The notes under the pieces: generated by a model
The model's input: the letters and a program-made list of their open reading frames with translations, nothing else
Databases searched by the model: none
Told to the model about the DNA's origin: nothing
Part shown: positions 877-64,000 of the stretch, piece after piece
Layout of the letters: each line of letters opens with the position of its first letter
Position numbering within the stretch: position 1 is the first letter of the stretch
Origin: Tribonema minus
Lineage: Eukaryota > Sar > Xanthophyceae > Tribonematales > Tribonemataceae
NCBI GenBank assembly: GCA_017506865.1
Contig: JAFCMP010000098.1
Location: 62,001 to 126,000, forward strand
DNA length: 64,000 nucleotides
Direction: 5' to 3'
Made by a program: the position numbers and the translations under genes

Positions 877-3800
877 CTACACGGTCCCCACGTGCTGCCG
901 CGCCGGGCTGGCGCTCTGACCGCGCCGCTGCTGCCGCTGCTGCTGCTGCCGCTGCGCATTCTGCTTGTCCGCAGGCGCGCTGGCGCGGCCGTTGCCGTGC
1001 GGCGCCGCCGCTGCCGCCTCGCGCATCGACGCCTTGGCTGTGCGCAGCGCGTGCTCCACCTGCCGCGGCGGTCAGCGGTAGCACGCGTCAGCTAACGTGC
1101 GCCCCGGTGTTGTCAACACTGTCGTACAGGTATCGAGGTGCATTGTAGCGACAACACCTGGGCGCACACTAACAGCGGCACGCACACTGCAGGAAGGAGG
1201 ATGCTTCTGCCCAGGGCACACCCTCGTGGCTCGGTGGGCGGGGTGCACTCTTGGTGGCGCAGTGGCGCGCGGTGATGGCCGCCAGCAGTCCAGACGCAAC
1301 TTGAAGACGATGAGAAGCATCTCAATGACTGGCACGCCAGTCTCGAGACATGGTGCTCGAGCAGTGCATGTCTTTGAGAGGCAGCCGGCAAGCAGCATTT
1401 TTGTACAGCGTCAACGGCAACAAACGTACTGCCGTAGCCCATATGATCAACACAAGGACTAGTCTACTCCGGTGTTCACGTTTGTACACACGTGTTTATA
1501 ACCACAAAAACTGGACTACTCTAAAGTTTACGTTCACAAGGGCAGCTGCTGGTCAAACGCATCAGCGCCCCCCGCCCAGCACAGTCTTAATGCACACAGG
1601 AATCTGTGTCACAGGTGTGGCCACAGCAGGAGCATACTTGGTGGTCCTGGGACCAAATTATCAGATTGGCGAGGAAATCAGCTCTCATCACTTCACACTC
1701 ACATCTTCCACAGTGTCGAGCACTGCCGCTCTCTCAGATGGTTGTAGTGCCACCGGAAGTTGCTGCAGTTTCTGAAATCTGCGGCAGCGCACGTTGCACC
1801 AGGCAAACAGGGATACTGTGAGAGAAGGGCGTGCACGGCACGAGTACCTTTGTACTGATGCATATACCTCGCTTGCCATGTCTTGATGAGGCATGTGCAG
1901 ACATGCACGAGCTGAGCGATGATGAGTCTGAGCACTGCCTCTCTGGCGACAGTTCGTCGTCGTATGGCCCGCAGCCGCGCACTGATGCAGCGCATCCCAT
2001 GCGATGTGCACGCCGGCGCCAAAGATGCGGCGCCCGATGCCGCAAAAACTTCAAGGCCAGTCCTGACGAACGCACACCGGCTTCCACTTCCGCGCCCCCA
2101 GTCCTCCAAACGCAGCCGTGCACAAGAGCTGGCACTTCAACTGGTACCGGAAGTACACTCCAACCTCAACCGATGACGTACCTCCGCGCCAGCTCCGCCG
2201 CGTCGCGCCGGAAGCCCTCCGCCTCCAGCGTGCAGCGCCGCTTCAGCTCCGCGTGCTGCGCCCTGACAGCCCTGCGCTCAGCGAGGCACAGCGCGACGGG
2301 GAGTAGGCCTTAAGAGTGTGAAGTTTTTGCAAAGATTCTGGGAGAGGCAGCAGCATGTGCAGCACTCCTTGCATGGCACCGACCAGCACGGGCATCCCTC
2401 GCATGGCCCCGACCAGCAAATATAGGCACATGGCTGCAGCAGAGTGCTAGCTGGTAGGCTAGCTGCGAGGCACAGCGAGACACGATTGCACAACAGCGCA
2501 ACCTTTGAGCACTGGGCACATGTGGCCTTTGACTGGCTGAGCGCTGTGCATGAGGAACTTCAACTTGATACACTTCGAAGCAGCAGCGAGGGCGCGCGTC
2601 GCTAGTACGCCGCCTCTTGCGCGCATCTGGTGCGTAAATTGAGCGCCGCGCGCTGCCCTAACCCTAACCCTAACATCAAACATAACCGTGCTTGACTGCC
2701 CCCCGTGCGCACGCGGAGGCACGTTGCGCGAAAAACAAAAAAACTAGACTGCGGTTCAAGACATCTGCCGAGTGGCTTGGTACGTCTGGTGTGAGTAGCT
2801 CAGCGCGCCCACCGGGGGCGTGGCGACTGATAAGGCAGGTGCGGAAGGTGTAAGCAACGCCGCTGTGACCCCAGTCCGCAAGAGGTCCATCATGGAGGGC
2901 GAGCCTTAACAAAGTAGCAAGTAAAAAGTGTAGTTTTTTTTTGCCATGACCGCGATGTTGGAGGCACGGGGAGTGCGCATTTCAGCAACGAAAGAGTGCA
3001 TCAGTGCTCAATCAATGTCACAGCGCTCAGCTTCTAGACAGCACAGGGGAGAGTCACCGACCTGAGCTCTTTCGACAGCGCCTGCTTCCGCTGCAAGAAG
3101 ACACGCTCCGCCTCCCTCTCCTGCTCAGCGAGCATGCACAGCTGACAGACGGTAGCAGCAGCACGTCAGCAGCAGGGGACAGCAATAATCACCATCAGCT
3201 GGCAGCAGCAGCAGCAATCATCAGCAAACAGCAGCACTCAGGAAGACCTGCCAAGATCTTCAGTGCTCAGCTCCCGCGAGCGCCACCGGCATTCACACGG
3301 TGTGCTGTTTTGCTTTCCGCCTCCGCTTTGCGAGAGCTGACCAGTACGCGGCGAGCGAGTGCGACGGAGATCATCCCTGAACAGCAGCACTCAGCAGCAC
3401 CAGCAACATCACACTAACCTGACGACAAGAGATCAGAGAAAACAGCGGTCAGCGATGCACTACGTTTACGCTCCCTGTTTAGCAAGGACGCACCCTCGGC
3501 AGCAGCGACCCAACAGAGCTGGTCACAACACGCTGTAAGCGGCCACAAGCATGGACTTGAACCATCCTGCAAGACCGATGCACCTGCAAACGCATGCCGG
3601 CACTTGAGCCTCCGCTGTTGCGGCTCGCTGCTGCAGCCCCCGCTCCGCATGCACACACCATATACACACAAGCGTCCATCGCTCGTGTTGCACATGCCTT
3701 TAGAATTAGACGAAAAGCTGGTGCCCCTCCACGCACCCCCGCCTGAGCCTCCGCTGTCGCGGCGCGCTGCTGCAGCCCCCGCTCCACACGCACACTCCAT

Positions 3801-14400: not shown

Positions 14401-17400
14401 AAGTGGCGGTTGTGCTCAGGTTCCTGGTCCCTGGGGTGGATGCTGGACGGGCTTGCTGTAGGTATGTATGTATGACGCTGTGTTAAGCAAAGGGCGCTGC
14501 AGCACCGGAATGCATATGCCGGCCGAGCCTGTGCAGAGGGCCCATTAACGCTGCTTAATCGCGTTGCCGGACGCGCGTCGCCACAAGCCAAGGGCCAGGG
14601 TTACGGTGACGGTTATGGTCAGTCAGTAAACCTATGGTCAGTCAGTAACCCTAAGTATCAGCCGTAAGTAGTGTCGGTTTGTGCTCAAGTTTCCTGGTCC
14701 CTTGGGGTGGGCGCTGGGCGGGCTGGATGTAGGTAGGTATGTATGTATTGCGCTGCGTTAAGCAAGGGCGCTGCAGCACAGAAACGCGTACGCCGGCCAA
14801 TGCTGCGTATCGAAGCATAACTCGTGTTGGGCACTTCATGTGGTCGCCATTGGTTTATGAGCTGGCACGTAGGTGCTCATTGTTGCTTGTTCGGATTGGC
14901 AAGACCTCATGCCTAATGTCAGAGAGTGTAGTGCGCGTTTGGCAGCCTTAAGTTCAATATGGAAGTGACACAGTAAGTGCTGCTGTCACTTTGAAGCTAT
15001 GTGAGTGGTGGATGTTAGATGCGCATATGATGCTGGGTGATCTTCATCTGCTGCTGCGTTTTCAAAGTGGTTAGCGGCCCAATTTCTGTCTTCCTGTCAC
15101 TTTCGAAATGCATTTGCTCACTCGTGCCCTTAAGTTTTTGACATGGCGGAGCCAAAAGCAGTGTTAGACATTGATTAATTTGCCCTGACCTCAGTGCATG
15201 GCGTGTTTGTCAGCGCACTTATCACATATAAATGAGACAAGAGAGCAGAATATGGCAGGCAGGCACATGCAGCAGTTCAAACCTTACAATCGGCACTGAT
15301 GACCATAGTTTAGCACCCTACCCCAGCGCGCACAGTACCATATCGTATTGCACACAATGCGGTACATATCTTGCACTCAACCCTAATGTGCAGATGAGTC
15401 AAGTGAAGTGCTGATGTAGTTGGGCCTGCAGCAGAGTATTGTATATATAAACAGCCTGAGTGTCTTTGTTCATACCCCAAGGCTGGCAGTACTGAAGTTT
15501 ATGTTGCGCATGCTGCAACAAAATGTTCAAAGCTTTTGCCCCTTTCACGAGCCGCACATGGTAGATTGAAGATGGAGTGCTTGCCCTCATCCCAATGCGC
15601 GAGCCTACCATTTCCCTTGGTCTCTGGCTAGGGTCACAGTGTAGGTAGGTTCACACGGAGTACTTCACAGGCGGCCTCCCTGGCGCTATTCAATGCTCAT
15701 CGCGCTTGGTGAAGTTCACTGTTGAAGTTCAAGTGCCATCAACTGACCTCTGCGTTGGCACTGGCCGTGTTGACCCCGTAGGTTCACCACCGAGTACTTC
15801 ACAGGCGGGCTGGCGCTGCTCATGCTTAGCATGGGCATCACGCTCTCGCCGCGTGACTTTGTCAACGTGCTCAAGCGGCCCAACGCGGTCGTGGTGGGCT
15901 TCGGCTTCTGCTACGCAGGTCAGTGCTCTGCATTGCAACTACTGTGTCAAATTTTTTTAATATGTGACAGTGAATTAGGTAGTCCTGATACAACGCTCTA
16001 ATTGTGGCTGGGCTCATGATGGAATTTATGCTGTACCGTTGCAACACAGCTCCTTCGCCCCTACAATGTGTTCCTTGCCACCCTTGGCAATGAGTATGCT
16101 GAGACCCGTGGATAGCACAACCTCCAAGACCAGCGCCACACGGCAACTTCAAGTACCTCGTGACGTCCAATTCTGCACTGCCGCGGCGACTTGCAGCGAC
16201 GCCGAAGCTCGCTTAGGGTTAGGGTTAGGGTTAGGCTTCTGGCCGTTGCAACGTGGTCATGGAGCACGCAGTGACAAAAACCCAGACGATCCTCAAGTAC
16301 GCGCTCATGTACATGGCCAAAGAAGGTAAGAGAAACAGACTCTCTGATGCGGCGGCGCCGCATGCCGGCGCTCGCTCGTGTACCAGGCGACGCCGTTGGG
16401 CTCTCCCCTGTGCTTCTGGCCGCTGCAACGTGGACATGAAATGAAGCACATGAAGCACGCAGTAACAAAGCATACACTGCAGCATATGGCCAGAGAGGTT
16501 TAGACAAACAGAGTCTCTGATGTGGCAATGGCAGTCGTGCCGGCGCTCACGTACGCGCTCGACATGACGGCGGGGCAATGTGCTGTGACAGAAAGGCATT
16601 GCTATGCGTATTCGTGCCAAGAGACACGTTCCAATTCTTCGACGCAACTTGTGATGTCGGCGCTTGCGTACACGCTCGGCATCGCGGCGGTGTGCAAAAT
16701 ACTCCACAGTCTGCAATTTAAACTATATTGTTCGAGCTGCTCTCTAAACACTGGTTGTCCCAGCGCAGCAGTGGTGGGCAGCACAGAATGGTATGCCGGC
16801 GCGCGCGTACGCGCTTAGTGTCGCTGTGGGTCTCTGCCCTGCGCTTCAACATGCCGATGACAAACGCGTTGACCATGTCATCCATGTGTTGAAGTATGAT
16901 CTTGAAGTCACTCAGCGATCTATGGCTGTGCGACTTGCCGCGCAGTGATGCCGGCGCTCGCGTACGCACTGGGCATCGCCGCGGGCCTCTCCCCCGCGCT
17001 GCATGACTCTCACTACGCATCGTTGGCCAAAGTATAGCAATACATGCTCAGGCACACTCTGACTGATTTAGACCTTTGATTTACATCGTCACCAATGGCT
17101 TTGACTCGCAGTGATGCCGGCGCTCGCGTACGCCCTGGGCATCGCCGCGGGGCTCTCCCCCGCGCTTCAATTTAAACCCACGCTTTTCTGACAGTCAGAA
17201 TGTCAACAATAACCAATGTGTGAATGCTACGGTGACTTGCCACGCAGTCATGCCAGCGCTCGCGTACGCCCTGGGCATTGCCGCAGGTCTCTCCCCCACC
17301 CTCCTGGCCGGCCTCGTACTTGTCGGCTGCATCAACGGCACACATGTTGAAGTTTGAACTTGAAGTAACTTCAGATCTATGACACTGACCCTCCGCACGT

Positions 17401-20400
17401 TGTCGACTCGCAGTAATAGCAGCGCTCGCGTACGCCAGGGCATTGCGGCGGACCTCTCCTTCGCGCTTTATGCCCATTACCCGGGCATTGACCACGATAC
17501 ACATAAAGCCCATGTTGAAGTATGAACTTGAACTAACTTCAGCAATGTATGGCTGTGTGACTTGCTGCGCAGTGATGCCGGCACTCGAGTACGCCCTGGG
17601 CATCGCCGCGGGCCTCTCCCCCGTACTTCAAACCCACGCTTTTCCAACAGCACGTATCTCAAGCAACGTCACAATCACTGATGCGTGAATGCTACGGTGA
17701 CTTGCCACGCAGTCATGCCGGTGCTCGCATACGCCCTGGGCATCGCCGCCGGGCTCTCCCCCGCGCTCCTGGCCGGCCTCGTCCTGGTCGGCTGCATCAA
17801 TAATACATATGTTGAAGTTCATACTTCAGCAGCCATTTTATTGCTGTGTGGCTCGCCACGCAGTCATGCCGGCGCTCGCGTACGGCCTGGGCATCGCCGC
17901 GGGCCTCTCCCCCGCGCTCCTAGCGGGCCTCGTCCTCGTCGGCTGCATCAACGGCGGCCAGGCGTCCAACCTGTGTACGTACATTGCCAACGGCAACGTC
18001 GCGCTGAGCGTCATGATGACCACCATCACCACGCTGGGGGCTATCGTGATGACGCCGCTGCTGTGCAAGCTGCTGCTCGGCGCAGTCGTGCCGGTCGACG
18101 CCCTCGGCATTGCGCGCTCCACTGTCGAGGTGAGTCGACGAAATGCTATTTGAAGTACATGTACCTCTGCCGTAGGAGTTATAGTTACTATTGGAGGTCA
18201 TGTATGCTCATGAGGACCACCATCACCACGCTGGGCGCCATCGTCATGACGTCGCTGCTGTGCAACCTGCTGCTCGGCGCGGTCGTGCCCGTGGACGCCC
18301 TCGGCATTGCGCGCTCCACTGTGGAGGTGAGCGAATGTATACCTTTCAAAGACATATACTTCTGCAGGAGTCCTGGTCAACAGTAGTGTATACTTATTTT
18401 TTGTATGATGAATGGTCTCGAGTCCTGCCTGTGGACGCCCTAGGGATTGCGCGCTCCACCGTCGAGGTGAGATGATGCACATTTGAGCAATATGCGCTTG
18501 TGATATCAATCTAATGATGAAGTAGGTCTCGCTCAGGGCGCAAAGTATATATACTTCCAAGTACTTTGAGGTATAAGTAGTGCAGACTACATATAGAAGT
18601 GTGTAGACTTATTTTCGTATGATAGGCGCTCATACGTAGTGCCCGTGGATTGCGCGGTCCACCGTTTAGGTGCGTGTATGTATGTATGTATGGATAAGTG
18701 GAGGTATGGATGGATGTATGCGTGCTTGCATGTATCTAGGGCTAGGGTCAGGGTGCTTGCATGATGAGTATTCGTACGTCGTGCCTGTCAACGCTCTCGG
18801 CATTGCGACTTGATGCATGCATGCGTTTGAGCAATACTCCTTTTCAAAAGGCCCTTTTGTTATTTACAATACTAGTTGAGGTGAGTGTATGTGTGGAAGG
18901 ATACACGGATGTCTTTTGTAGATGGCCCATCACGAGGCCTGAATGCACATGCTTGTGCGATACCAGCGATTGCGTCTTGTTGCGTGTACATGTTGCTTTG
19001 GCAATGACCGCGAATGCTGTGCACGTATGCGCCACTGCCATCGAGGTGCTTTTGACGCTCTCTCTCCCATTTTTCGCATCAGGTGGTCCTGGCACCGATC
19101 GCTGTGGGCATGGCTACCAACAAGTATTTCCCCAAGCTTGTGAAGGTGAGAAATATGCTAATACGTAGAGTTACATAACGAATCAAAAAACAATGCGTTG
19201 CTTCGTTAGTTATTCGGTATTCGTTATACAACGAATAACTAACGACGCCTCTGAAGGCGATTCGTTGTTTTCGCATTTTTGAAAAATGCCCCCCTGCGGC
19301 TCGTTGCCGAGCTTATTACGCGGTGTAAACAGTGAAGACTGCACGCATGATGTTGCGCTGACGTGCCAGCAACAGCAGCACCAGCACAGCAGCACATTGC
19401 TATCACCAAATCCGGCTTTGTGGTTGCCAGCCTCGCCAAAAGCACGACCTGCAAGTAGCCGCGCATGAAGGCATTCGCCGAGTGCTTGCTTCATGCTGGT
19501 TGGCAGCAACACACGCCGAAGCCATCATGGCATTGATCTTCAGACTTCTGACCACCGGCTTTGTAGCCTTAGCTTTCAGCACACACACACACAAAATGAA
19601 CTTCAACAGTTGGTGGAACCTCAAGTAGGGTTTAAAAACCTCATATGCACACTGGTGCTGTGAGACACGCCATGCTTTGATTTTACAGGCTGTATAACTG
19701 CTGAAGACAAAGATAAGAGCAGCCATAATACATGGAAGTCCCACAGAAAGAACTTGAAGGCGCTCTTTCACCCTTGACCCATTTTTAGGGTGGCGGTAAG
19801 TGAATTTTGCTGGTGAAACCATCAATATCAATCAAAAACGATAAAATAACGAGTATATGTAGAATAACGAATAATTAACGAATAACTAACGAATGGTCCA
19901 GCAGGCATAACGAATAACTAACTATTGCAATAGTTGCGCAACTCTACTAATAAGCACAAGCTTGTGCATGTGGGAAATGTGCTATTTAACAAGGCAGGGA
20001 CGCGCGTGTGTCAGCAAGAAATATGATTAGGGCTAGGGTTAGAAGTGGGTGCCACCAGTATGTTGGCGGGCTCCCTTCAAACAAACACTTTAGTGAAGAG
20101 GGCGGTTAGGGTTAGGGTTAGGAACAAGTAACAGTGTACTCAACACCGAACTCCATATTTGTTTTGGTATGCTTGGCTTTTGTCTAGATTGCCTGCATCA
20201 TATGCTGTGGTTGCCCATGCTGCGTTCATCACTATTAAGTGAGCATCGGCCCTGCTAACTAAAAGAGCAGTGTCCCGCTCTCGCTGCCCCCTTGTCCCCA
20301 CTTAATCCGCTGTGACAATTTCACTGCCTTGGAATCAGCGCACGCACTTTGTCGCTCTCCGACCACTGCTGCCTGACGCACTGAGATGCCGCACGCGCTG

Positions 20401-20479
20401 TTTTCCTGCCCCGCATTTGTCTGCCTTAAAAACGCTGCATCAAGACACAATTGAGTTTGCTCACCATTGTGATTTTGGC

Positions 20480-20512
<33 letters not shown>

Positions 20513-40700: not shown

Positions 40701-43700
40701 TAAATTCACATGGCATTCATTCATTCGTCCATCCATCCTGTGGCACGCGAGCGCATCATCTTATCTGCGCCAGCCGCGCAGCATACTCTGCTTGCTGTAG
40801 CTGAGGCAGCTGGAGATGGTTCGTGCTAGACCTCTATTCGTTCACTCACGCATTCATTGATCATTCATTCATCTACTCACTGCCATGTGCTGCGCCCTCA
40901 ACGTCTCCTCTCCATCACATCGTGATGATCTGGAAGGGGTGGTCGGCACGTCCAATGCACACGACCACATTCGTCCATTCACTCACACGTTTATTTACTC
41001 ATGCCTGCAGGAGCTGGAGCAGCTGGAGATGATCTTCAGGGGTGGTCGGCATGCGCACCAACATGGCCACGGTTCATTATTCAATCACATGTCCATTCAT
41101 TCATTTCACGCGTGCGCAGGAGCTCGAGCAGCTGGAGATGATATTCAAAGTCGTCGGCACACCCACCGAGAGCGCGTGGCCGGGGCACGCACATTACTGC
41201 ATTCATTCATTCACGCATTCAATCAATCATTCATTCACTCATTCATTTCATGCGCGCGCGCGCGCAGGAGCTGGAGCAGCTGGAGATGATCTTCAAAGTC
41301 GTCGGCACGCCCACCGACAGCGCATGGCCGGGGCACGCAGAGCTGCCGCTGTGGCAGGAGATGCAGCCGCCGGTTTTCTACCCCAACGTCCTCAAGTCGC
41401 ACCTGTTGGAGACGGCACGCAAGGTACAGTGGTGTACTGGTGGTGAACTAACCCTAATCCTAACCCTAACCTAACCCTAGGGTGGTGCCCGCGCCCGCTT
41501 GCAGTTCATTACGGCAGCGAGCGAGGCACACGTGTGCGTGCTCAAGGTTGCTTAACACAGCCCGGCAGTGTATCCCAATGTCCTCAAGTCGCACCTGCTG
41601 GAGACTGCCCGCAAGGTACAGTGGTGATATGGTGCCGCGTGTGTTTGCAGTGTCCATTACGGCTGCGAGACACATGCGTGTGCATGCTGAAGTTGCGTTT
41701 GACAGTCTAGATGCTTGCTGCCGGTAGCGCAACGTGAGGTGGGAAATATCAGGTTGGGCAGGACAGCTAAGGCTGAAGTGTATCACTGTGCATGGGCATA
41801 TTTTTGCAGCGAGGCGCATCATGTGCCCTCAGCAGTGCTCAGCATTGGAACCTGCACTGTACGCTGCAGTCCCACATTGCGTAAGCCGTTCTATGTACAT
41901 CACGGCGCCGAACAGCAAAGTCAACGTACACAGACAGGTGTTGAGATTAAGGCAACATCGCCGCTTTGAGTGCCCGCATCATGGCGGACTCATGCAGCTA
42001 TTTCACGTACCACAGGGGATGTAGTGCACGCACACCGCCTATCACGGCCAAGCTCTTTGTTTTTTCCAGGTGCTGTAAATAAATAAATAGCTTGGACAAC
42101 CCTAGATGCATCACAGCCTTGTGTTGCTACAACTTCAACCAAGCGGTGCGCCCTGTGGACGCAATCTCTACCTCAAGATACATACTCTGAAGTTTGAATA
42201 TATACAGTATACCAAAACACCTCGAAGTACTCACAAAAGCTGCACCAGTACCAGTGGTTATACCTCTGCACGATGTCAAACTTCAACTTCAATCAGTACG
42301 CTCCCGTCCCGCGCGCCGCGGCAGATGGGCACGCACTCCAGCATGACCCCGGAGGCCGTGGACCCGACATGTCTCTCTCTAAATACATTATTTCCAAGCA
42401 AAAATCAACAGACAATACACCTAACAAAAAAGCTGTACCAGTGCTATATGTACTAGACAGTACTACTCTACATACTGTAGCCAATCTCAACTCTGACCCA
42501 ATCTGTATGCTCATCGTCACGGCGGCTGTTGCACGCCGCTGCAGATGGGCACGCACTCCAGCATGACCCCCGAGGCCGTGGACCTGATAGCGCGCCTCAT
42601 GACGCTCGACCCGCAGCGCCGCATGAGCGCCAAGACGGCGCTAGAGGGCAGGTAGGTAGCGGCGGCATGGCTTGCGCGCTGCATACGTACATACCGCTTC
42701 ACTTCCGTCGACCTGATACATAGCGAACCTCATGACGCTCGACCCGCAGCGCCGCAAGAGCGCCAAGACGGCGCTCGAGGGCAGGTAGGTAGTGGCGACA
42801 TTGCTCGCGCGCTGCGTACATACATACCGCTTCACTGAGTACAGCAGCGCTCAGCGGCTTAGAGAGAACCTGCGGCGGGCGCGCTCATGCTGATTTTTTA
42901 AGCGTGGACCAAAAGTGGCGCTCCCATACTTGAGGTTGAAGCCGACCAACTTTGGGTACCGTAAATCACGGGGTATAAGACCGTGCCTCTGTATAAGAAA
43001 CGGGTGTCTTATACGGCGTATAAGTCACCCGTTTCTTGCAGCATTTTGACAGGCATGTATGTAAGATACTAGGTTTGCTGTATAAGAAACTCCCTTTCTT
43101 ACAGGCGGCATAAGGAACTCTTGCGTGTAAGAAAGGGGGTTCCTTACGCGACGGTAAAAGAAACTCGTACCTTGTGCAGCAAGCAAGGCAACTAGCAAAT
43201 TTTAGCAAGGAACCAATGACAGGCATGCAGCAAGCAGTACATGAGCCTCTGAGCTTGGCAGGCCCTCGCTTGCGCTTAGCAGAATGCTCTGGTGCTGGTA
43301 GCGTTCATCTGATTCACCATCGCTGGTGGCGCTGCTGCTGCTGCTGCTGCCGCTAAATCGGCTAAACCAGCTGCACTAACATCAGCGGCATTCATTGTTC
43401 AGCCGTACTACTCAATGCCTCACTGCCGCCTCTCAACTTCAAGACCCCCAAAACCGTTTGTGACGCACGCAATGCCGTATAAGATACCTGCTTCTTATAG
43501 CATGTTAACAATTGTGTATGTAAGATACTAGGTTTGGTGTATAAGATACTCCCTTTCTTATACGCCGTGTAAGAAACCTGTATCTAAGAGGGCCAAAAAG
43601 CTGGCGTTGTTAAGGAACGGGTGTCTTATACGTGATTTACGGACCTCGCACAAGCTGACCTCGTCGGGCGATGCTTCAGAGGACTTGGCTTCTTCCGCCA

Positions 43701-50980: not shown

Positions 50981-50984
50981 CAGG

Positions 50985-53957: not shown

Positions 53958-54037
53958 GGCATGTTGGCCCAGTCTAGGGGCTGTTTGAGCACTGACAGCA
54001 GGCGCTGCTGCGGCGCGCTCAGCTGAACGGGCATGGA
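53955..54037 (-). repeat. Copy of CPOX exon 7 beyond the stop codon
   Basis: The plus-strand text GTTGGCCCAGTCTAGGGGCT with CTGTTTGAGCACTG (reverse of [14 protein letters not shown]) occurs at 54,161-54,230 inside the live last exon and again here, about 205 bp further 3' and past the stop. Confidence 0.9.
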
Positions 54038-54039
54038 AA

Positions 54040-54150
54040 TGCACCAAAAGACCGTAGAGCTCCAGGCAACAAGGTGTGGTCAGCCGTCGCATTGAATGCC
54101 TTCCGCCAATCACCGCGGCCGCCGCTGCTGCGGCAACTGGCCACGAGTCA
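54040..54150 (-). repeat. Dispersed ~105-bp repeat overlapping the CPOX stop codon
   Basis: Read on the minus strand, GTTTGACTCGTGGCCAGTTG, then CGCAGCAGCGGCGGCCGCGG, then GACCACACCTTGTTGCC and GAGCTCTACGGTCTTTTG, matches 8,606-8,715 and 9,858-9,965 (plus strand). Shorter matches lie at 38,034-38,076 (plus) and 31,621-31,656 (minus). The TGA of CPOX is part of the shared text. Confidence 0.8.
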
Positions 54151-57100
54151 AACGGTGCCCATGTTGGCCCAGTCTAGGGGCTGTTTGAGCACTGCCAAAA
54201 GGCGCTTTTGTGGCGCGCTCAGCGCTGCGCCGGATGCCTGATCCGTGCCCGTGTACTTCCACGCTATCAGCGGCGGAGCGCTGACCATGATGCTCTCCAC
54301 GCGCCCCCCGCCCGTGAGGCCAAACTTGACCCCCCTGCGCGGCATTGGTCGCATGCAAGGGGGTAAGTCAGCGCTGGTTGACGCACGCATTTGGCATTAA
54401 GGGCATGTGCAGAGGTGTCGGCAAGGGGGCAAGCAGAGCAGATTGATGTGTGCAGTGGGGGTTGAGCGCAGATGCAGTGGTGTGGTGCCCAAAGCGATGC
54501 GAATTGGTATTCGGTAACTATGCTGCTCTGTTGGCACTGCGATGCGCGCGCATGCACGTGGAATTCCATGCGCAGGTGTGCACATTGCTCAGTTGCTCTC
54601 AACTTCGGTTTTTGTTTCAACCGGCACTATGTTGTCAATGCCTTTCACACTGGGGGAGCCAAGAAATAAACGGCTGCAAGGTGCCGAAGCAGCAAAAGGC
54701 CGGCACGGAACTGCCCTGAACACGCGCGCACACGCACGTTGCTCACAGGCTTGCTGCCCAAGCACTTGAAAAGTGAGCTTTCGCAATGAGCATCTGAGCA
54801 CTGACTATGGTGCTCTCCATGCACCATATGCACCAGGGGAAACGTACAGGTCACGCTTCAGCGTAGGCTTAAAAAGAAAATCTGTTGACCTGGGTACTAC
54901 ATGAGCCCTCGACGCAAGAAATGCGCGTGTGCACCGCGCTCACGCGTGCGTCTGACCTGTCATACAGCAAGTTGAACTCCAGGTACCGCCCTCGCCGCAA
55001 CAGCTGCCATTGCCGCTGCTCCTCTGTGTACGGCTGCATGGCATGCATGGGGGGGGGGGGAGGGGGCAAGAGCGTATCAGCTCACGCTCACGCGGCGCCG
55101 TCTGCTGATGCATGCCACTTGGACATATGAGTTCATGTAAGACGTGTCCGCGATGTATTGCACATTCAGTCATGAATTCATTCATGAACTAGAATATACG
55201 GCCCTGTCACTGTACATCACACGTGCGCTGGCAGAGCAATCACGTGCCAGCAACGCGACCGCCGGCCTGCTGTTGCGCAGTGGGCTGCGCAGCAGGCGCG
55301 TCAAGGATACGGGGATGCTAACTTCATGCAAGAAACAGTAACAGCCCCCCCTCCCCCCCCAACGCGGCAGCAATGTCTGCCTATGCCCAATGCCATGCAA
55401 GTACTGCCAACAAAAAATTTTAAAGTGCATCACACGGCGACACAGCGGCGCACCTCCGTGCCGCGCTCCGCCGCCAGCGGCAGAAACGAAGGCATGAATG
55501 CCTCCGCAACGTCCCTCACGAATGCGCCCACGTTGGCGGCGCCGCCGCTGCTGCCCTCGGTGTTGGGCCCCATGGTCTCCAGGTCATCGAAGAAGATGCC
55601 CCCCACCCCCCTGTGCTCCCCCCTCATGGGTATGTAGAAGTACTTGTCCGCCCAGCCCTGTGCATCACGCATGTGCAAGAGTGCGCAGTTCAGCATAAAA
55701 ACGGTGTGAAGCACATACTGCAAAGTTGTCCGATGGCAGGTGTCAGCTACTTTGCCATCAGCTCCTGCGCGTGCGACCATCATCACGGATGACATGCATG
55801 AATTGCCTGAAGACCCCCGCCCCTTCCCCACGGTCCACCCCTTGCTGAAGAAGGTATGTACAGTACGCACAAGTGTACTGCATCAGAATATGGTGAAGCG
55901 CTGCCCCTGCGACGCGAGGACATACATCAATGTTGAAGTTGCGGTTCAAAACATCCTCCCTCCCCGTAGTTCAGCTTCATTGTAAATCGCGCGGACGTAC
56001 AAGTTTCTTGTTGTTGTGCATAGCCGCCATGCCACGCACAGACACCAATCGATGCTGAATCGGTGCTGAAACTGCAGTCCACACACAGCGAGCAGCTGGT
56101 CACTGGAGGAAAACTGCGAGTGCGCTGCAGACTGATGTATGTGCTCTGGCAGTGGCATTCAGTAAGCGCCCAGGCCGTTATATCATGGGATCCAGTGGCA
56201 CAGTCCATCCTGCAGTGAGCACATGAGCTGCAACTGCGCGGTTGTGTGGTGCTATTGCGGTCTCGTCACTACGCGCGTACCTTGAACCGGACATAGTCTT
56301 CCGTGGTCCCGTGCCTCTCGCATATGGCCCTGTACAGGCGGTGAAACGCTATGATATCGCCGTCGGTCAGGTAGTAGGGCGTGAGGTCAGCGCCGCCGCC
56401 GTACCACCTCTGCCGCAATAAAACACATGCGCACAACGCAGTGATGGTATCAGTGCTCAGGCTGATACCACAAATGTATAGCTCGCAGCAAGTGCGTTCG
56501 CGATTATGGCACATGGGAGTTCCCGCAGCGTCACGGTCCTTATGTTGCGACACTTGTGTGTGAAGTATGACCCGGTTGCGCCTGATGTTTCCGCGCGGCG
56601 TGCGCATGGCACAACTAGACGTTGGCAGCGGCAGTCATGTACTGTTGTGAAGTCGTATGGGCATGACGCTGTGACGAAACAAATTTTGTTGTCTGTTGGA
56701 GCATATGGCAGTGACATGCTCATTCTCATTGCCGCTTTTCACGAGGGGCGGTTACGGCAGTTACACTTGCCGGTACACAGACCCAATACAATCACTTCTA
56801 GCAGCACACGACTGGCGCCGGATTTCTGTTGCAATGGTCACCTCGATGTCTACCTCTGTCGGTGTGGAGCAACAGGCTAGTGAGCAGCAGCTCTCTACGC
56901 CGCAACACTGTCGTCCAGGTAAAAAGCGGTGCCGCAGCTCTGGCAATGGCATGTACGGCAGTGCGTCGATGGTACATAGGTATACGGGCCAGAACACTCG
57001 CTTGCGACGCAGCAGATGTGTACTGAGCACACATTCATTATACATATTCATGACCGAAGGCGTGGCATTCGCGAGGCACGCGCAGCTGGCAGCAGGCTGT

Positions 57101-58670
57101 TGTATAACGCTACAGCGGACGCACACATACAGTATTCTGACTAAGCAGACGCAAACAAATAAAGATCATGTCACGTCCCAGCTGAGCATACATGCATGCT
57201 GGCCGTGCGATCGCTAGTTCTATTCTGGCGTAAAATTGATGCTGTATGCGCACCTGGCCAGCCACCTCAAATAGCCGTACGTCCGCACGGAACGTTGGCA
57301 CCAAGGGACTGCGGCAACGAGCGAATAGGGGGAACTTGCGTCAGGTGGGAGGCTTGTGGCTTGGTCAAAAACTGCGGCACACAACTGCATGCTACGCTTC
57401 GGCCATGCAATCAAAGGGACTCCATGGTGTGTGGCATTGTCACTGCGTTTGCTGAGCATGAAACTACTCTGTGATGAGCAAGTGGAACCACTGCTCAGTG
57501 GGGCAAGGTAATGCCAAGACTCTACTGGTTCACAGATGTCATGCATCGACACCGTAGTGGCGGAAGTGCGCATGCTATATGCACATAAGGCTTAAGTCAT
57601 AAGCGCTAAATTAGCACAGTCTGGTGGGGTCTCGTTGCCAACAGTACTACAGGATGTACGCACTCTTTCTTCAGAGCAGGCACCTGCTGCACCGGCTGCA
57701 GAGCTAGCTGCGGCTGCTGCATGAGTGCCATGGCAGCTGGCGCAGGTGCTGCCTGAAGGCCTAATATAAGTGTTGCGAGTTGCAACACTACATCCCAGCT
57801 GCAGTGCGCAAAGCACAAATGAAATGCTGCAGGGTTTCCCGCCACCAAACTTCAACAACAGCGCCTGATCAGCGCTTTTACGACCCATGACACTTCGCAG
57901 CACTCTAGCCACCACTCCACGATGCCTCGACGAACTGCAATGAAAACCTCAAACCTCCTCACCTTCGTGAGTGAAACACGAGCGACAGCGCCGCGGCGCT
58001 GTACGGCTGCCCCCCATTGGCGTCGATTCCCTCCCGCCCACGCCCCGTCATGGCCTTCGCTCTGTCTGCAGTGAGCGTGCCGTGTATGATGGACACGCTG
58101 GCCGCTGCCTTCTCCAGCAGCCGCCCACCCTCCAGAACGCGCGTAATGCCAAACCCCCTGCTGCCCTCCCCTCGCTCCCATCTGGTGTACACGAGAAGTG
58201 ACAGCAGCACAGGTGGTGAGGTCCAGGTGTCTCCTGAAAGGCGGATATGGGTTTTGAGGTGCCACGCTGGTGGGAACTTGGCAGTCGTCATCTCTATGCT
58301 CCACCAGCTCATGCGGCACATACAAAAACACTGGAGTGCAGAAGTCAGGGCGAGGCATGCATGAGCTTTTACAGCATGCTGCGAACCTGTCTACGCAGAA
58401 CGTGGCCCCAGATGCATCTGCTTCCTCAGCCTGGCTGCAAATGGTGGCTTGTGTGTCGACAATAAACTGGGCGAAGCTCTGGAAGTCATCGCTGCCCTCG
58501 CTCTGCGCCAGCTGTGGTGCAGCTTCAATTGTGTTAGCTGCATGCGTTCGAGAGAGACCTTCGCGAATGCTGCGTTGCGGCGCGTTTGCGCCCAGCGCAG
58601 GGCGTGCGAAGGCACAGCATAGTTGTGGCGTCCACAGCAGCAGCCCGAGGGCTACTATCTGCGACACCAT
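54148..58670 (-). CDS. CPOX: Coproporphyrinogen III oxidase, oxygen-dependent, plastid-targeted
   Basis: Oxidatively decarboxylates coproporphyrinogen III to protoporphyrinogen IX in heme and chlorophyll synthesis; plastid stroma by inference. Exons: 58670-58387, 58181-57963, 57308-57254, 56409-56281, 55657-55454, 55033-54957 and 54334-54148. Phases close and give 384 residues. The N-terminus is a signal peptide ([19 protein letters not shown]) then AFARPALG, a Phe-type transit motif. Family motifs run in order: [80 protein letters not shown] and [17 protein letters not shown]. One usual stretch is altered: EKAGVNVS reads EKAAASVS. The first donor joins the acceptor at 58,181, giving FCVDRWERGEG. 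The stop codon lies in a dispersed repeat. It is divergent from gyrB. Confidence 0.95.
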
Positions 58671-58883
58671 GTGCTCCAAAGAAACTCAAAGCATGCACCA
58701 ACACGAAGATGACTCGCCATTTTTATTTGCGCTGAGCCACAACGCGCTGCCGGCCTGGAGGCCGACGCAATTCGCATCACGCTTTGGAGTCGGAACCTCG
58801 CTGCTGTTAGCAACAGCAAAGGCAAGAACCTGCTATACCAGCGGTGCCGAAACTTCACTTCTCTGCCTTGCCACAGCGTAGCC
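58671..58883. promoter_or_regulatory. Compact divergent promoter between CPOX and gyrB
   Basis: Only 213 bp separate the two start codons, both of nuclear genes for plastid proteins, so co-regulation is plausible. No named element was recognised. Confidence 0.5.
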
Positions 58884-61800
58884 ATGCGTGCTGTCGGCAG
58901 AGTCACTCAGGGTGGCCTGACATCATGCCTGGCGTTAATGGTGTCGCTGCTTCCAAGAAGGGGGCAGTGCTTTGCGCCAAGCGCTGCGCAAGGCAGCTTC
59001 CTGGCTCGCGCCAGGTTGCACACCCTGGCCGCCGCCGCTGCTTCATCTGCACAACATCGGGGTAGCAGAAGAAGGTTGCTAGTGATGAGTGCGGTGCAGG
59101 CGGAGGAGGCAAGCAGCACAGGCAAGGCAAAGGGGAGAGGAAAGCGGAACAGCAGCAGCGCCACAAAAGTGAACACGGACTATGGCGCGGATCAGATCAC
59201 GGTGCTGGAAGGCCTTGAACCTGTGAGGAAGCGGCCTGGCATGTACATTGGCTCGTCGGGGACGAAGGGTTTACATCATTTGATATTCGAGGTGAGGGCA
59301 CGGCAATAGTGTACCAAGGAAGATACAACACCTGCATAGAATTTCATGATTGTTCAACGTCCACGTGGACTGCGTTTCGGATGCAAAGTGTGGTGTCATG
59401 TTTTACACCACTTGCTAGTGGAACTACCTAGTATAGCTGTCGTCACCAGAGCAATTGCTCTTGACCTTGTGCTATGCCAAGAGCTGCACTTGCCTGACTG
59501 AAAACAGAGCCAGCACCTGAGCATTTGTTACCAATGCTTGCCAACACACGCCAGCCAAGCTTCTGCATTATCACTCATCAGCCTCCGTTTGTACGCAGAG
59601 CACACGTAACATGTTACAGGCTCATGTGGCGCATCTGGTGTGCCGCTATGCCAATGTGCTGTGGCGGCCTTCGCAAGCCAGTAAATGAATTCTATACACC
59701 CACGGCTCTGCAGGTTTGCTATTCATCGGCAGGTATGTCCAAACTACCCAAGGCAGCTCTGGTTCTGTACCTTCAAGTTTATACCGGCCAGGTTGTATTC
59801 GTTCAATCCGGCAACAACAGGCGCACGCATATGAAGCATGCGACCTAAACTTACAGACAATAGGGGAGCCTGTGCACTGTGCCATCATGGCATGCACGCC
59901 GCAGCCATGCGGTCACCTTGATCACCCCGACAACAGCCCCTGCATCCAACAGAGCGCGCTTTCAGCACAGTCGTGCCGGCCTGCCGGCCCAATGCTGCTG
60001 CGATTTTTGCTCTCATAACAGTCCGGTTGGTGCTGTGCAAACGTTTGCTTCATCGGCTGATGGCAGAATCGTATTTGTATTCACTACATTCAACTCTACA
60101 TGGCGGCATGCAACTTGTGCGCGCTGTGTGGCATGGAGCCCTTACTGCACGTGCCGAGACATCACACCGTCCATTACTGCCGCCCCCCCCCCCCCCCCCC
60201 CCCCCTCCCAGGTGGTGGACAGCTCCATCGACGAGGCGCTGGCGGGGGGGGGGCACTTTACTTATTTCCACCTGCAGGCGCCCCCCTCATTGCCCCCTCC
60301 TCTTTCCCTTCTGCCCATTCTCAAAATCACCATCCCCCCCCCCCCCCCCCGCGCCTTCTTCTCCTCTGTTCCCCACACGCACCTCTGCCAGGTGGTGGAC
60401 AACTCCATCGACGAGGCGCTCGCAGATATACTTCTTCTCACCTATAAGCCAATGCCCCCCTCATTGCCCCCTCACTGTCCCCTTCTCCCCATTCTCAATG
60501 ACCATACCCCCACCCCACCCCGCCCCCCCTTCCCCTTTCCCCACGCTGCCCCCCCAGGTGGTGGACAACTCCATCGACGAGGCGCTGGCGGGGCACTGCG
60601 ACGCCGTCTTTGTGACGCTAGAGACGGACGGCAGCTGCACGGTCAGCGACAACGGGCGCGGCATACCGTGCGCGCTGCACCCGCAGACGGGCAAGAGCGC
60701 GCTGGAGACGGTTATGACCGTGCTGCACGCGGGGGGCAAGTTCGGCGGCGACGGCAGCGGCTACAAGGTGTGCAACGTAGCGGTGTGGTTTCTGGTGTGT
60801 GCGTGGAGCAGGGTGCAGTGTGTGGCGCAAACGCGGGTGCTGTATAGGGTGGCGGGGACGTGTGGAGCTGTCTTGCATAGCCAGAGGGTGCGTATGCATG
60901 CTTCACGCGGGGGGGAAGTTCGGCGGCGACGGCAGCGGCTACAAGGTGATGTGGCGCCGCTGTGTAATTCCTGGTGTGTGTGGTGCGGAGGGTGCAGTGT
61001 GTGCTGCGAAGCGGGGTCCAGTCTTGGGGTGTGAGTGTGAACAGTCTTCCATGGGCAGGGGGCGCGTATGCGTGCCGCACGCGAGTGGGAAGATCGGCGG
61101 CGGCCTCCACGGGCGTCGGCCTCAGCGTGCCATTCATGCATTCAGCTGGTGCGTCCACCCACTTCACTTCATTAACGCGCGTTCCCCACCCGGTCACTCT
61201 CCAATCCTTGCCCCCCCCCCCCCACACACACACACATCAACATACAGTGTCATACACACATACCAGGGCAGCGGCGGCCTGTACGTCATCGGCATCAGCG
61301 TCTGTGCGTTCATTCACCTCATCCATTCGCCCATGCACGCGCATTCACCCCACTCACTCTACATACATGCATACCAGGTCAGCGGCGGCCTGCACGGCGT
61401 CGGCATCAGCGTCTGTGCGTTCACTCGCTTGATATACTTAACGCGCGTTTCCCATCCATTAACGCCCGTTTCCCACGGAGTCGCCTGATCCCTCCCCCTC
61501 CCCCGCCATCTACATACATACATACCAGGTCAGCGGCGGCCTGCACGGCGTCGGCATCAGCGTGGTCAACGCGCTGAGCGAGTGGGTGAAGGTGGAGGTC
61601 AGGCGCGGCGGCGACCTCCACACCATGGAGTTTGCGCAGGGCAAGACGCAGGGGCCCATGGAGATTGTCAAGGGGGGTGCCGACGGGACAACAGGTACCG
61701 GCGTCTGCTGCTTGAAGTTTGAAGTTTGAAGTTTGTACTCATCAAGGGGGCGCTGGTACAACAGGTACCGGCGTCCGCTGCTCGTTTTGTGGACAATCAG

Positions 61801-64000
61801 CTATTTGTCTACTGTTTTACTTCAATGTTGTCGGAGTTTGAAGTTTGATGTTTGTGGTCGGCAAGGGGTGCACCGACAGTACAACAGGTACTGGCATCTG
61901 CTGCTCGCTTTTGTGGACAATCAGCTGTTTCTCTACTGTTTTACTTCAATGTTGTTGAAGTTTAAATGTTAAAGTTTGTGGCCGGTAAGGGGGGCGCGCC
62001 GGGGGGACAACAGATGCCGGGCTTCTGCTGCTCGCGTTATGGACAAGCAGGGTCAGGGTTAGGGTTGCGACCCGCAAGACCAGGCATGCACCTGTGGCAG
62101 AGTACCTACTACCTGGTAGGCTCGCATGCAGTAAGTCTCTGTTTTCGTTGCGCGTTGTTGAAGTTTTGCATGGGGAAACAACGGGGAGAGCCAGCTGGGG
62201 GGGGGGAGGGGGGGGGGGGGGGGGGGGGGCAACATACAAGGACCCGCCACCGCGGCGCGCTTCTCTGGTGACGTAAATGGACCGGTTGGCTGAATTTGCG
62301 GATGCCCTGTGTGGTATGTCAAAGCGAATCTGCGAATGTACAGATCTCTGCACAGATGTCAGGACAGAGCAGACAGTGTCTGTGGTGCAGTTGGCCCGGG
62401 CGATGCGACCGGCTAACCCTAGCCTAACCCCAAGTTCCTACCGGTTTGTCCCGCAGCTGTGTGTGATGGCTGCAGAGCCTTCAGGAATCGAAGCACGACC
62501 ACGCAGTACAATCAGAATGAGTCATCACCATCTGATTGTCTGTCAAATGTGTGTTCTGTGAGTAGGCAGTCCGCATAACCTGCCCGGTGTTGGCCGCATA
62601 CGCACACTGTACCTCCATGGACCACATCCTTGTATTGCCGTGTCTGCGCTCTGATGGTAGTGCGATGCTCAACAGCAAACTTCAACTTCAATGTCACATG
62701 TACTTTTTTGTGTTGTTGGCGTACAACAGCTCGATGGCGCCAGCAAGCGCATGCATCGTTGCTCACTGTCTACCCGTCGCGCTGCTGCTTCTGCTGCTGC
62801 TGCTGCAGGCACCAAAGTGCGCTTCAAGCCCGACGCCGAGATCTTCAAGACCACCACGGTGTTCGAATTTGACAGGTCAGCGTGAGGGCAGCCGCCAGAA
62901 GTGGTGGCTCAAGATGCAGGCAGAGCGCGTTGTGGTACTACTGACAGCACACACTGCGAACCAATTTGGCATTGCTTGACGTTTTCTGCGCGTTGCATGT
63001 GTTGTGCTATGTTCCGGTGCGAACTGTGAGGCATGGCAAGTTTTAATAGTCGGAGGTCACTTTGACATCTGTGCATGTTTGCCGCACGGCACCGCAGCCA
63101 GGTGGCTCCATCTGCAGACTGCTTGACGCCACAACTATGTGACATAAGACGCTGGCAACGCCAAATGCATTGCGACACGCCGCCACCTAATTTGATTCGT
63201 GTCCTGTCCATTGTCCTCGCTGCTTCTCGCTCAGGGCGTGAACAAGCCCAAATGGTCAGCGTCAAACTCGCTGCTGAGATTCATACCCTTGCGTCTCATA
63301 CCCTCGCGTCTCACTGCTCGTGGCGATCACCCGGGATGATTTTGTCAAGCAGCAATCAAAAATCATAACCGCATTTTCCCCGCACTGTACCTGTGTGTTG
63401 GCGCAGGTTGTCATCGCGAATGGACGAGCTGGCGTTCTTGAATGCCGGAGTCAGGCTCATCATGACCGACATGAGGGAGGGCCTCGATGCGGATGGCAAG
63501 CCCATCAAGCAGCAGGAGTACTTCCATCAGGTAGTACACATGCAGTACAGTGCCTGTACTCTTTGTATCTCGTGGTAATCATGTACTGCATGTGTACTCT
63601 GTAGAACATGCTTGTGCTTCCTGTCTGAAAAACTGTGCTTCGGCAACCCTGCTGCTTCGATCTGCTTGATTTTGGCCAGGTGAGGAGGGAAGGCCTGCAT
63701 ATTGAACCGTGTGGGGTTTACCTGCAAGTGCGCACAGCAGCCACTACTAACTGGTTTGAAGTCCTAGATGCACGGACACGTACTTCAACTTCAACTCCAG
63801 CCTACGCTCCAAGGCTGGTGTCTGTTCGTAGTTGAATAGGCCTGTTGTCTTTCTGTCGCCCGCAAACGCCGTTCTGAATCGTCTGCTGCGCTTTTTCTTG
63901 TGCTGCAGGGCGGCATGCGCGAGTACGTGGAGCTCATGTGCACGGAGAAGACGTGCCTGCACCCAGAGGCAAGTTCAACTACTTGAAGTGTACTATTACA
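58884..64000 (+). CDS. gyrB: DNA gyrase subunit B, plastid-targeted, 3' end outside window
   Basis: ATPase subunit of bacterial-type type II topoisomerase, supplying negative supercoiling in the plastid (possibly also the mitochondrion). Exons seen: 58884-59291, 60558-60767, 61529-61694, 62809-62875, 63407-63530 and 63909-63968; the gene then runs off the window. The first 100 or so residues are a presequence (hydrophobic [12 protein letters not shown], then [11 protein letters not shown]). The GHKL ATPase domain is intact: [63 protein letters not shown] and [17 protein letters not shown], followed by [20 protein letters not shown] and the transducer start. The last visible donor is GC rather than GT. 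Poly-C and poly-G tracts and exon-edge copies fill its introns. Confidence 0.95.
60205..60557 (+). repeat. Copies of gyrB exon 2 start
   Basis: CCAGGTGGTGGACAACTCCA with TCGACGAGGCGCT occurs near 60,212 (AGCTCC variant) and 60,392, then live at 60,558. Spacing is about 180 and 166 bp. Each copy is followed by a CCCCCTCATTGCCCCCTC stretch. Confidence 0.93.
60768..61110 (+). repeat. Copies of gyrB exon 2 end
   Basis: After the live donor at 60,768, CACGCGGGGGGGAAGTTCGG through GGCTACAAGGTGATG recurs at about 60,903-60,955, and a more degenerate copy lies at about 61,078-61,105. Confidence 0.88.
61262..61528 (+). repeat. Copies of gyrB exon 3 start
   Basis: ACATACCAGGTCAGCGGCGG with CCTGCACGGCGTCGGC occurs near 61,269 and 61,378, then live at 61,529. 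Both copies diverge at the same point, GCGTCTGTGCGTTCA in place of GCGTGGTCAACG, so one was probably copied from the other. Confidence 0.93.
61735..62035 (+). repeat. Copies of gyrB exon 3 end and donor
   Basis: AAGGGGG, a degenerate Ala-Asp-Gly stretch and ACAACAGGTACCGGCGTC recur near 61,762, 61,888 and, degenerate, 62,014, following the live donor at 61,695. Each is followed by CTGCTGCTCG-type intron text and TTGAAGTTT. Confidence 0.9.
62200..62229 (+). repeat. Poly-G tract
   Basis: An almost uninterrupted G run with one A, in gyrB intron 3. Comparable C or G runs lie at 5,455-5,470, 30,176-30,198 and 60,183-60,206. Confidence 0.9.

What the first reader, a model, noticed from the sequence alone, without database searches (positions are those of the whole stretch)
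877..62035. Window-wide exon-edge duplication ladders beside live splice sites
In at least six unrelated genes on both strands, introns hold degenerate tandem copies of the adjacent exon edge together with its AG or GT. There is a strict polarity: copies of exon starts lie upstream of the used acceptor, and copies of exon ends lie downstream of the used donor. About two dozen junctions show this, with 1-10 extra copies each. Copies stop partway into the exon, so they are not whole alternative exons. The simplest reading is recurrent junction-spanning tandem duplication, kept only where splicing can skip the extra copy. That would be a mutational engine that enlarges introns and records past exon sequence. 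I know of no described genome where nearly every junction carries such a ladder.
Basis: partly seen in the sequence, partly recalled or inferred. Interest (0 to 1): 0.95.

Follow-up and report, generated by a model that had tools for sequence, protein, structure and literature searches.

The report
Tandem duplications straddling splice junctions
In this yellow-green alga many introns hold decayed tandem copies of the neighbouring exon edge, left by a widespread habit of duplicating short stretches of DNA in place, which is harmless at a splice junction because splicing removes the spare copy.

Summary
The ladders are real. The window is from Tribonema minus. Its gyrB, CDK and bile-acid-symporter genes carry 1-7 intronic copies of exon starts (upstream of the used acceptor) or exon ends (downstream of the used donor), splice site included. 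Polarity is strict: 0 of 27 internal exons break it. A transcript-derived gyrB protein crosses 14 introns with no copy included. Similar copies occur in two HSP70 genes on other contigs.

Two claims fail. Ladders are not at nearly every junction: 8 of 62 junction sides outside the window (13%), 0 of 28 in a cytosolic HSP70 pair. They are not clearly junction-specific: length-matched positions elsewhere score 13% too; E. coli stretches 0.2%, Markov sequence 0.07%.

Copies look neutral: no codon periodicity in arrays of the 20 other stretches, and copy-exon divergence a third to a half that of control pairs, as expected if mainly the copy drifts. Best reading: widespread local tandem duplication, probably from break repair (inferred), silent where it spans a splice junction. 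Known in kind; striking in density.

The parts
59153..62875 (+). plastid-type gyrB, first exons (59153-59291, 60558-60767, 61529-61694, 62809-62875); gene continues past the window
   Evidence: spliced alignment to transcript-derived P0001 (555/558 identical, 14 introns; P0001 starts inside exon 60558-60767) and to Chrysoparadoxa P0003 for the first exon
60203..60423 (+). two upstream copies of the exon start at acceptor 60557 (60203-60247, 60369-60423)
   Evidence: exon part 35/36 and 31/32 identical, AG kept
60899..60948 (+). downstream copy of the exon end at donor 60767
   Evidence: exon part 45/47, GT kept
61091..61412 (+). three upstream copies of the exon start at acceptor 61528 (61091-61129, 61251-61301, 61358-61412)
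   Evidence: exon part 32/36, 31/35, 35/35
61067..61129 (+). chimera: decayed copy of the end of exon 2 fused at GGCGGC to a copy of the start of exon 3
   Evidence: blocks 61067-61102 and 61091-61129; sequence read
61742..62032 (+). three downstream copies of the exon end at donor 61694; the last has lost GT
   Evidence: exon part 20/23, 21/26, 22/25; period about 124
34705..42651 (+). cyclin-dependent kinase gene, exons 34705-34776, 36073-36148, 36677-36761, 37834-37942, 39153-39352, 40290-40374, 41268-41423, 42545-42651
   Evidence: exact spliced alignment to T. minus protein P0121; Pfam Pkinase pieces
38811..39095 (+). three upstream copies of the exon start at acceptor 39152
   Evidence: exon part 22/24, 23/24, 29/30
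41007..41191 (+). two upstream copies of the exon start at acceptor 41267
   Evidence: exon part 46/52, 67/72
41571..41634 (+). downstream copy of the exon end at donor 41423
   Evidence: exon part 40/45, intron part 18/18
42311..42367 (+). upstream copy of the exon start at acceptor 42544
   Evidence: exon part 41/43
17864..18129 (+). exon of a sodium/bile-acid symporter (SBF) gene
   Evidence: Pfam SBF 1.3e-20; all 9 genome matches found lie at this locus
16531..17800 (+). ladder of upstream copies of the SBF exon start (16934-17000, 17107-17166, 17236-17339, 17403-17467, 17561-17623, 17701-17800; two weaker at 16531-16574 and 16793-16845)
   Evidence: the block at 16793 does not include the junction
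18208..18471 (+). two downstream copies of the SBF exon end (18208-18331, 18421-18471)
   Evidence: 92% and 87% identical over the exon part, GT kept
54500..58800 (-). coproporphyrinogen III oxidase gene without a detected ladder (negative case in the window)
   Evidence: Pfam PF01218; spliced alignment to E. coli HemF, small exons uncertain; no direct match listed between 54223 and 60180

Best explanation
The genome of Tribonema minus carries many local direct (tandem) duplications, mostly 50-200 nt per unit, spread unevenly but nearly absent from exon interiors. When a duplicated segment happens to straddle an exon-intron junction, the downstream copy of an acceptor (or the upstream copy of a donor) stays joined to the rest of the exon, so normal splicing yields the old mRNA and the spare copy becomes intron. 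Repeats of this give a ladder with forced polarity and a longer intron. The spare copies then drift while the real exon edge is held by selection, which makes exon edges the best preserved part of each unit. Shown: direct adjacent copies, polarity, absence of copies from one mature gyrB product, decay that fits neutrality, and a frequency outside the window equal to that at length-matched positions. Inferred: the duplications come from end-joining of staggered breaks after fill-in synthesis, as in the published CST/Pol-alpha-primase route; the many interstitial telomere repeats hint at break repair too.
For: Direct against inverted within 1 kb: 102 to 0 in the window, 227 to 5 summed over 20 other 10-kb stretches (5 flanking on C98, 15 on five other contigs; 0 to 41 direct per stretch). 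45-nt segments at 3000 positions in these 264 kb: 15.9%/15.8% have a direct copy within 600 nt upstream/downstream, 2.1%/2.2% in reverse complement; a second draw of 1500 gave 13.1% and 2.7%, E. coli stretches (35 kb) 0.2%, Markov-1 resample 0.07%. Junction sides outside the window 8 of 62 against a length-matched 13%. Polarity 0 of 27 broken. Exon interiors 6 of 210, reverse complement 0. Transcript-derived protein crosses gyrB introns 2-15 exactly. Copies against real exon, 38 alignments: differences by codon position 47:41:103, close to the 1:1:2 expected when the copy drifts freely and the exon only at synonymous sites; without SBF 35:23:48. No codon periodicity in 248 segments of the 20 other stretches (z=1.0). 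Identity at 21 real acceptor copies against 160 pseudo-junctions: 0.90 against 0.81 at +3..+7 and 0.94 against 0.83 at +8..+15, i.e. divergence cut to a third to a half; intron side -6..-15 0.55 against 0.49-0.53. Near-perfect duplications: overlap minus period -4 to +5, median -1, 25 cases. Telomere dimers: 38 in 264 kb against 0.03 expected.
Against: Young long duplications are scarce: by TRF 0 of 31 arrays with unit >=50 nt are >=95% matched, against 29 of 156 shorter ones; by self-BLAST 6 of 215 nearest pairs are >=95% identical. A steady neutral process should leave young ones commonest, so either it has slowed or the assembly collapses them. Sides inside the window exceed their length-matched background (9 of 24 against 17%, p=0.013). 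AG at acceptor copies is kept at 39 of 42 base positions (21 copies), against 0.64 at pseudo-junctions, a little more than halved divergence predicts. SBF copies differ from the exon more at codon position 3 than 1:1:2 (12:18:55), though they share changes of the real exon and are not independent. Codon periodicity is weak but present in the window (z=2.3), in L009 (z=2.3) and over all 372 segments (z=2.2). Pace et al. state that tandem duplications typically form by a mechanism other than break repair, against my inferred step.
Confidence: 0.8

Rival explanations
1. A junction-directed engine: duplication is triggered at splice junctions themselves (for example by R-loops or nicks at exon edges), so ladders are enriched there.
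For: Window genes show 9 of 24 junction sides with copies against a length-matched 17% (p=0.013); outside, leaving out the ladder-free HSP70 pair, 8 of 34 against 14% (p=0.13). Copies are found for 17% of exon windows 0-30 nt from the junction and 8-12% of intron windows within 150 nt.
Against: All outside sides: 8 of 62 against a length-matched 13%. The window was chosen for its ladders. An exon-side excess is expected from the frozen real exon. The most array-rich of the other stretches show no coding signature.
Confidence: 0.1
2. The copies are functional: alternative splice sites or recursive-splicing steps kept by selection.
For: 34 of 41 junction-spanning copies keep AG or GT; AG kept at 39 of 42 base positions of 21 acceptor copies; SBF copies differ from the exon mainly at codon position 3; several exons begin with GT, so an acceptor copy reads AG|GT.
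Against: No copy appears in the transcript-derived gyrB protein, which covers introns 2-15 of one gene. Distances from copy to junction fall in all three frames (10, 19, 12). Codon pattern without SBF and reduced divergence fit neutral copies. No codon periodicity over the 20 other stretches.
Confidence: 0.08
3. Assembly artefact: false tandem copies made by the assembler.
For: Few near-identical long units (0 of 31 arrays; 6 of 215 pairs) is odd for a living process.
Against: Most copies differ from each other by 5-30%, and one gyrB unit carries an 18-nt telomere insert that its neighbour lacks; artefactual copies should be near-identical. Contigs reach 2 Mb.
Confidence: 0.03
4. Introner-like mobile elements that carry splice sites.
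For: Many introns hold repeated units with splice sites.
Against: For the one exon tested, all 9 matches found in the 158-Mb genome lie at its own locus (the tool scores best candidates only).
Confidence: 0.02

Closest known systems
Intron growth by a tandem duplication crossing an intron-exon boundary (potato RdRp gene, Ma et al. 2016, PMC4974935; abstract and outline seen)
   Same: Tandem duplication crosses the junction; splicing signals of the parent are duplicated and a former exon piece is spliced out.
   Different: One event in one gene, with a new intron whose donor comes from the former exon; here many events, several copies per junction, and the original exons stay joined.
Repair-mediated duplication of proximal DNA in vertebrates (Pace et al. 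2009, PMC2671141; abstract and passages seen)
   Same: Local copies of up to 619 bp made in break repair, including splice sites.
   Different: They removed copies within 50 bp of each other as tandem duplications of another origin, and counted over 1,000 cases only inside interrupted transposable elements, so densities cannot be compared.
Small tandem duplications from CST-guided Pol alpha-primase fill-in at breaks (Schimmel et al. 2021, PMC8355091; abstract and passages seen)
   Same: Tandem duplication by fill-in of complementary overhangs to near-blunt ends followed by end-joining.
   Different: Shown for overhangs of 43-50 nt in cell lines; the older units here are mostly 100-200 nt and the enzymes were not examined.
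Intron gain by tandem duplication of coding sequence with a proto-splice site (Drosophila, Lehmann et al. 2010, PMC2891723; abstract and outline seen)
   Same: Tandem duplication reshapes intron-exon structure.
   Different: There a new intron arises from duplicated exon sequence; here an existing intron grows.

Membership tests
Junction-spanning tandem genomic duplication | copy contains exon edge plus intron with splice site, same strand, next to the original | tested here: met
   41 of 47 copy blocks in the five genes with hits span the junction; 102 direct, 0 inverted within 1 kb
Junction-spanning tandem genomic duplication | mature mRNA unchanged | tested here: met
   one gene only: transcript-derived gyrB protein crosses introns 2-15 exactly, 7 of them with ladders
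Junction-spanning tandem genomic duplication | an outgroup or sister strain lacks the copy | not testable with these tools
   no relative of this genome is held
Proto-splice (AGGT) exonic tandem duplication giving a new intron | intron 5' part resembles the downstream exon start, intron 3' part the upstream exon end | tested here: inconclusive
   start against donor-side 600 nt 5 of 22 and end against acceptor-side 600 nt 2 of 22, but most of these introns are short enough for these stretches to overlap the ladders
Whole-exon duplication / mutually exclusive exons | copies carry a complete exon with both splice sites | tested here: not met
   junction-spanning copies reach 7-111 nt into the exon; 0 of 27 internal exons >=90 nt show copies on the wrong side
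Introner elements | one sequence family in many unrelated introns | tested here: not met
   SBF exon: all 9 matches found lie at its own locus; one gene tested, best candidates only
Break-repair tandem duplication (CST/Pol-alpha fill-in and end-joining) | joints with little microhomology | tested here: inconclusive
   25 near-perfect duplications, overlap minus period -4..+5, median -1; units <=48 nt, and I did not check whether any lies at a junction
Break-repair tandem duplication (CST/Pol-alpha fill-in and end-joining) | dependence on Ku, CST, Pol alpha | not testable with these tools
   needs mutants

The most novel reading that the evidence does not exclude
Tribonema has, or recently had, an unusual way of mending broken DNA ends in which fill-in synthesis and telomerase act at breaks over much of the genome, leaving local duplications at about one position in seven and telomere repeats about every 7 kb of the sample. 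Introns then grow mainly by duplicating their own edges, so intron length becomes a neutral record of break repair.
Probability: 0.3. Interest if true: 0.75.

Novelty: new variant of a known kind. Interest (0 to 1): 0.5.

Why it matters
Where intron length comes from is an open question. Here one source can be read directly: frozen exon edges act as clocks for duplications in the intron next door, so rate, size and age of the process could be measured genome-wide from one assembly. It also gives a natural test of how the spliceosome picks one of several near-identical acceptors or donors, and a warning for gene annotation.

Tried and rejected
1. Junction-directed duplication: rejected as the main cause, because the rate outside the window (8 of 62) equals that of length-matched positions (13%); a mild excess is not excluded. 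My first comparison (16%) gave random positions a full 600-nt flank, more than short introns offer; one search corrects this. 2. Coding constraint on copies: suspected from the SBF gene by eye, tested by codon position, by periodicity over arrays and by a pseudo-junction control; the control removed most of the signal. 3. Faster decay of the intron part of units: pseudo-junctions show nearly the same drop; only acceptors were compared. 4. Divergent haplotypes or paralogues as the source of SBF copies: no second locus found. 5. Clustering of telomere repeats in arrays: not seen (4 of 36 runs overlap arrays, coverage 16%); the systematic search for empty sites listed 3 of 36 runs at its threshold, none of them a clear case; the one clear example came from reading the sequence. 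6. Pfam scan of two of the six frames of window 1-15000: no family. 7. No paper describing the ladders was found in the searches; the T. minus genome note is recalled and not held.

Rows dropped before counts: the spliced HSP70 alignments gave 55 candidate introns in 12 loci; 25 passed a filter (33% identity and 30 nt on both exons, intron of 60 nt or more), with 4 hits in 50 sides. One search used 21 of these 25, leaving out 4 introns of L036 and L042 with weak alignments, none with a hit. L033 and L034 were not used again, being the same genes as L045 and L046. SBF and the coproporphyrinogen-oxidase gene are not in the 43-intron count: the first was noticed for its ladder, the second has uncertain small exons.
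Full report
WHAT THE WINDOW IS. The window is C98:62001-126000 of a 158-Mb genome in 554 contigs. Its CDK gene encodes P0121, listed as Tribonema minus on a contig of 277,006 bases, the length of C98 (taxonomy). T. minus is a filamentous yellow-green alga (Xanthophyceae). The window holds a plastid-type gyrB, a CDK, a sodium/bile-acid symporter (SBF) and a coproporphyrinogen III oxidase gene.

GENE STRUCTURES. I wrote a spliced protein-to-DNA aligner and set exons with close proteins. P0001 (EukProt, a Trinity transcript; species not shown in the listing) matches gyrB at 555 of 558 residues and fixes 14 introns, numbers 2 to 15; the first intron comes from the Chrysoparadoxa protein P0003. P0121 fixes the CDK exons. 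HSP70 genes on other contigs were set with human HSC70, recalled from memory, and E. coli DnaK.

THE LADDERS ARE REAL. Self-BLAST of the window gives 102 direct and no inverted matches within 1 kb. Junction copies are listed: of 47 copy blocks in the five genes with hits, 41 span the junction, 34 keep AG or GT, and 4 more match a real GC donor. Median spacing is 140 nt. The SBF exon has a ladder at both ends: six clear and two weak copies upstream, two clear copies downstream. Polarity is strict, 0 of 27 internal exons breaking it. This follows from the geometry of tandem duplication: only one of two duplicated junctions stays attached to the rest of the exon. In two HSP70 genes on other contigs, three donor sides and one acceptor side score; one copy keeps its GT, two have lost it, and one begins 12 nt inside the exon.

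HOW COMMON. Test: does the 45-nt exon edge have a local match of score >=26 in the adjoining 600 nt of intron? Over 43 introns (gyrB 15, CDK 7, HSP70 21), 17 of 86 sides and 15 of 43 introns do; reverse complement 1 of 86. Inside the window 9 of 24; outside, 8 of 62. Two sister cytosolic HSP70 genes have none in 28 sides. So ladders are widespread but far from universal.

NOT CLEARLY SPECIAL TO JUNCTIONS. The sample is 264 kb: the window, five 10-kb stretches of the same contig and fifteen at set places on five other contigs. At 3000 random positions in it the same test gives 15.9% upstream and 15.8% downstream, reverse complement 2.1-2.2%. A second draw of 1500 gave 13.1% and 2.7%; E. coli stretches gave 0.2%, Markov-resampled T. 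minus 0.07%. It is uneven: 0 to 41 direct pairs per 10-kb stretch. With flank lengths matched to the introns, positions on other contigs give 13.3% against 12.9% at junctions outside the window (p=1.0); inside the window it is 37.5% at junctions against 17.0% (p=0.013); outside without the HSP70 pair 23.5% at junctions against 13.7% (p=0.13). The window was picked for its ladders, and a frozen exon makes copies easier to see, so I read these mild excesses as no proof of a junction effect, but they do not exclude one. Exon interiors are nearly clean: 6 of 210 tests, of which 4 are ladders reaching in from an edge, by my reading of the rows. Local duplication therefore strikes broadly and is purged from coding sequence, but survives when it straddles a junction. 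Introns with a ladder are longer, 1018 against 447 nt median, though short introns also offer less to search.

THE COPIES LOOK LIKE NEUTRAL FOSSILS. If only the copy drifts at codon positions 1 and 2, and both copy and exon drift at position 3, differences should run about 1:1:2. Observed 47:41:103 over 38 copy alignments; by gene 27:17:33 (gyrB), 8:6:15 (CDK), 12:18:55 (SBF, whose many copies share changes of the real exon). Mismatches between array members in the 20 other stretches show no three-base period (248 segments, z=1.0), including the most array-rich ones L013, L014, L016, L017; the window (z=2.3), L009 (z=2.3) and the whole set of 372 segments (z=2.2) show a weak one, with SBF and CDK pairs among the strongest. 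At 160 random pseudo-junctions, found in the same way, identity is 0.81-0.83 on the chosen side (+3..+15) and 0.49-0.64 on the other (-1..-15); at 21 real acceptor copies it is 0.90-0.94 on the exon side, 0.93 at AG, and 0.55-0.71 further into the intron. So the exon side diverges about a third to a half as much as pairs in which both members drift, and the intron side is near the control.

MECHANISM. Duplicated units are direct and close, 118 of 215 nearest pairs with spacing of 100-200 nt. Twenty-five near-perfect duplications, all with units of 48 nt or less, show no microhomology on average (overlap minus period -4 to +5, median -1). Interstitial telomere dimers number 38 in 264 kb against 0.03 expected, and in one gyrB ladder an 18-nt insert of three telomere repeats sits in one of two units with the empty site in the other. 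Telomere inserts at repaired breaks are known in mammals (PMC7215372, abstract seen), and tandem duplications arise by CST-guided Pol alpha-primase fill-in and end-joining (PMC8355091, abstract and passages seen). I infer break repair of this type; no gene of the pathway was examined, telomere repeats do not cluster in arrays (4 of 36 runs), and Pace et al. hold that tandem duplications typically have another origin.

WHAT DOES NOT FIT YET. By TRF, 0 of 31 arrays with units of 50 nt or more are >=95% matched, against 29 of 156 shorter ones; by self-BLAST 6 of 215 nearest pairs are >=95% identical. A steady process should leave the youngest class largest. Either long duplications have become rare or the assembly has collapsed them; raw reads would tell. 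AG in acceptor copies is kept slightly more often than halved divergence predicts (39 of 42 base positions).

COMPARED WITH WHAT IS KNOWN. Single junction-crossing tandem duplications are published (potato RdRp, PMC4974935, abstract seen), as are local repair duplications that include splice sites (PMC2671141, abstract and passages seen). The kind is known; the density in one genome, and its reach into the intron-exon structure of ordinary genes, I did not find described (searches; one limited library). No eukaryote other than T. minus was measured here, so how unusual the density is among eukaryotes is not shown.

Noticed in passing
window and 20 sampled stretches: Very frequent short interstitial telomere repeats (TTAGGG): 36 runs in 264 kb, roughly one per 7 kb, and TTGAAGTT / GGTATGTA words 20-26 times over expectation.
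   Followed up: partly
window:45387-45654: The public T. minus CDK model (P0121) ends with an exon that starts at an acceptor inside the array at 44856-45562 and reads an arginine-rich tail; possibly a misannotation caused by the array.
   Followed up: no
L009:2700-8000: By eye, the 6.5-kb gyrB intron 7 holds a long GC-rich stretch that may be a mobile element; the acceptor ladder of that intron lies 5.7-6.0 kb from its acceptor, as if split by an insertion.
   Followed up: no
window:61067-61129: A gyrB copy that fuses exon 2 end to exon 3 start without the intron, joined at GGCGGC; looks like a deletion between two ladders rather than a cDNA copy.
   Followed up: partly
G000:C522:953001-960000 and 980001-987000 (L045, L046): Two inverted sister cytosolic HSP70 genes, aligned blocks 78-91% identical, without a ladder in their 14 introns.
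   Followed up: partly
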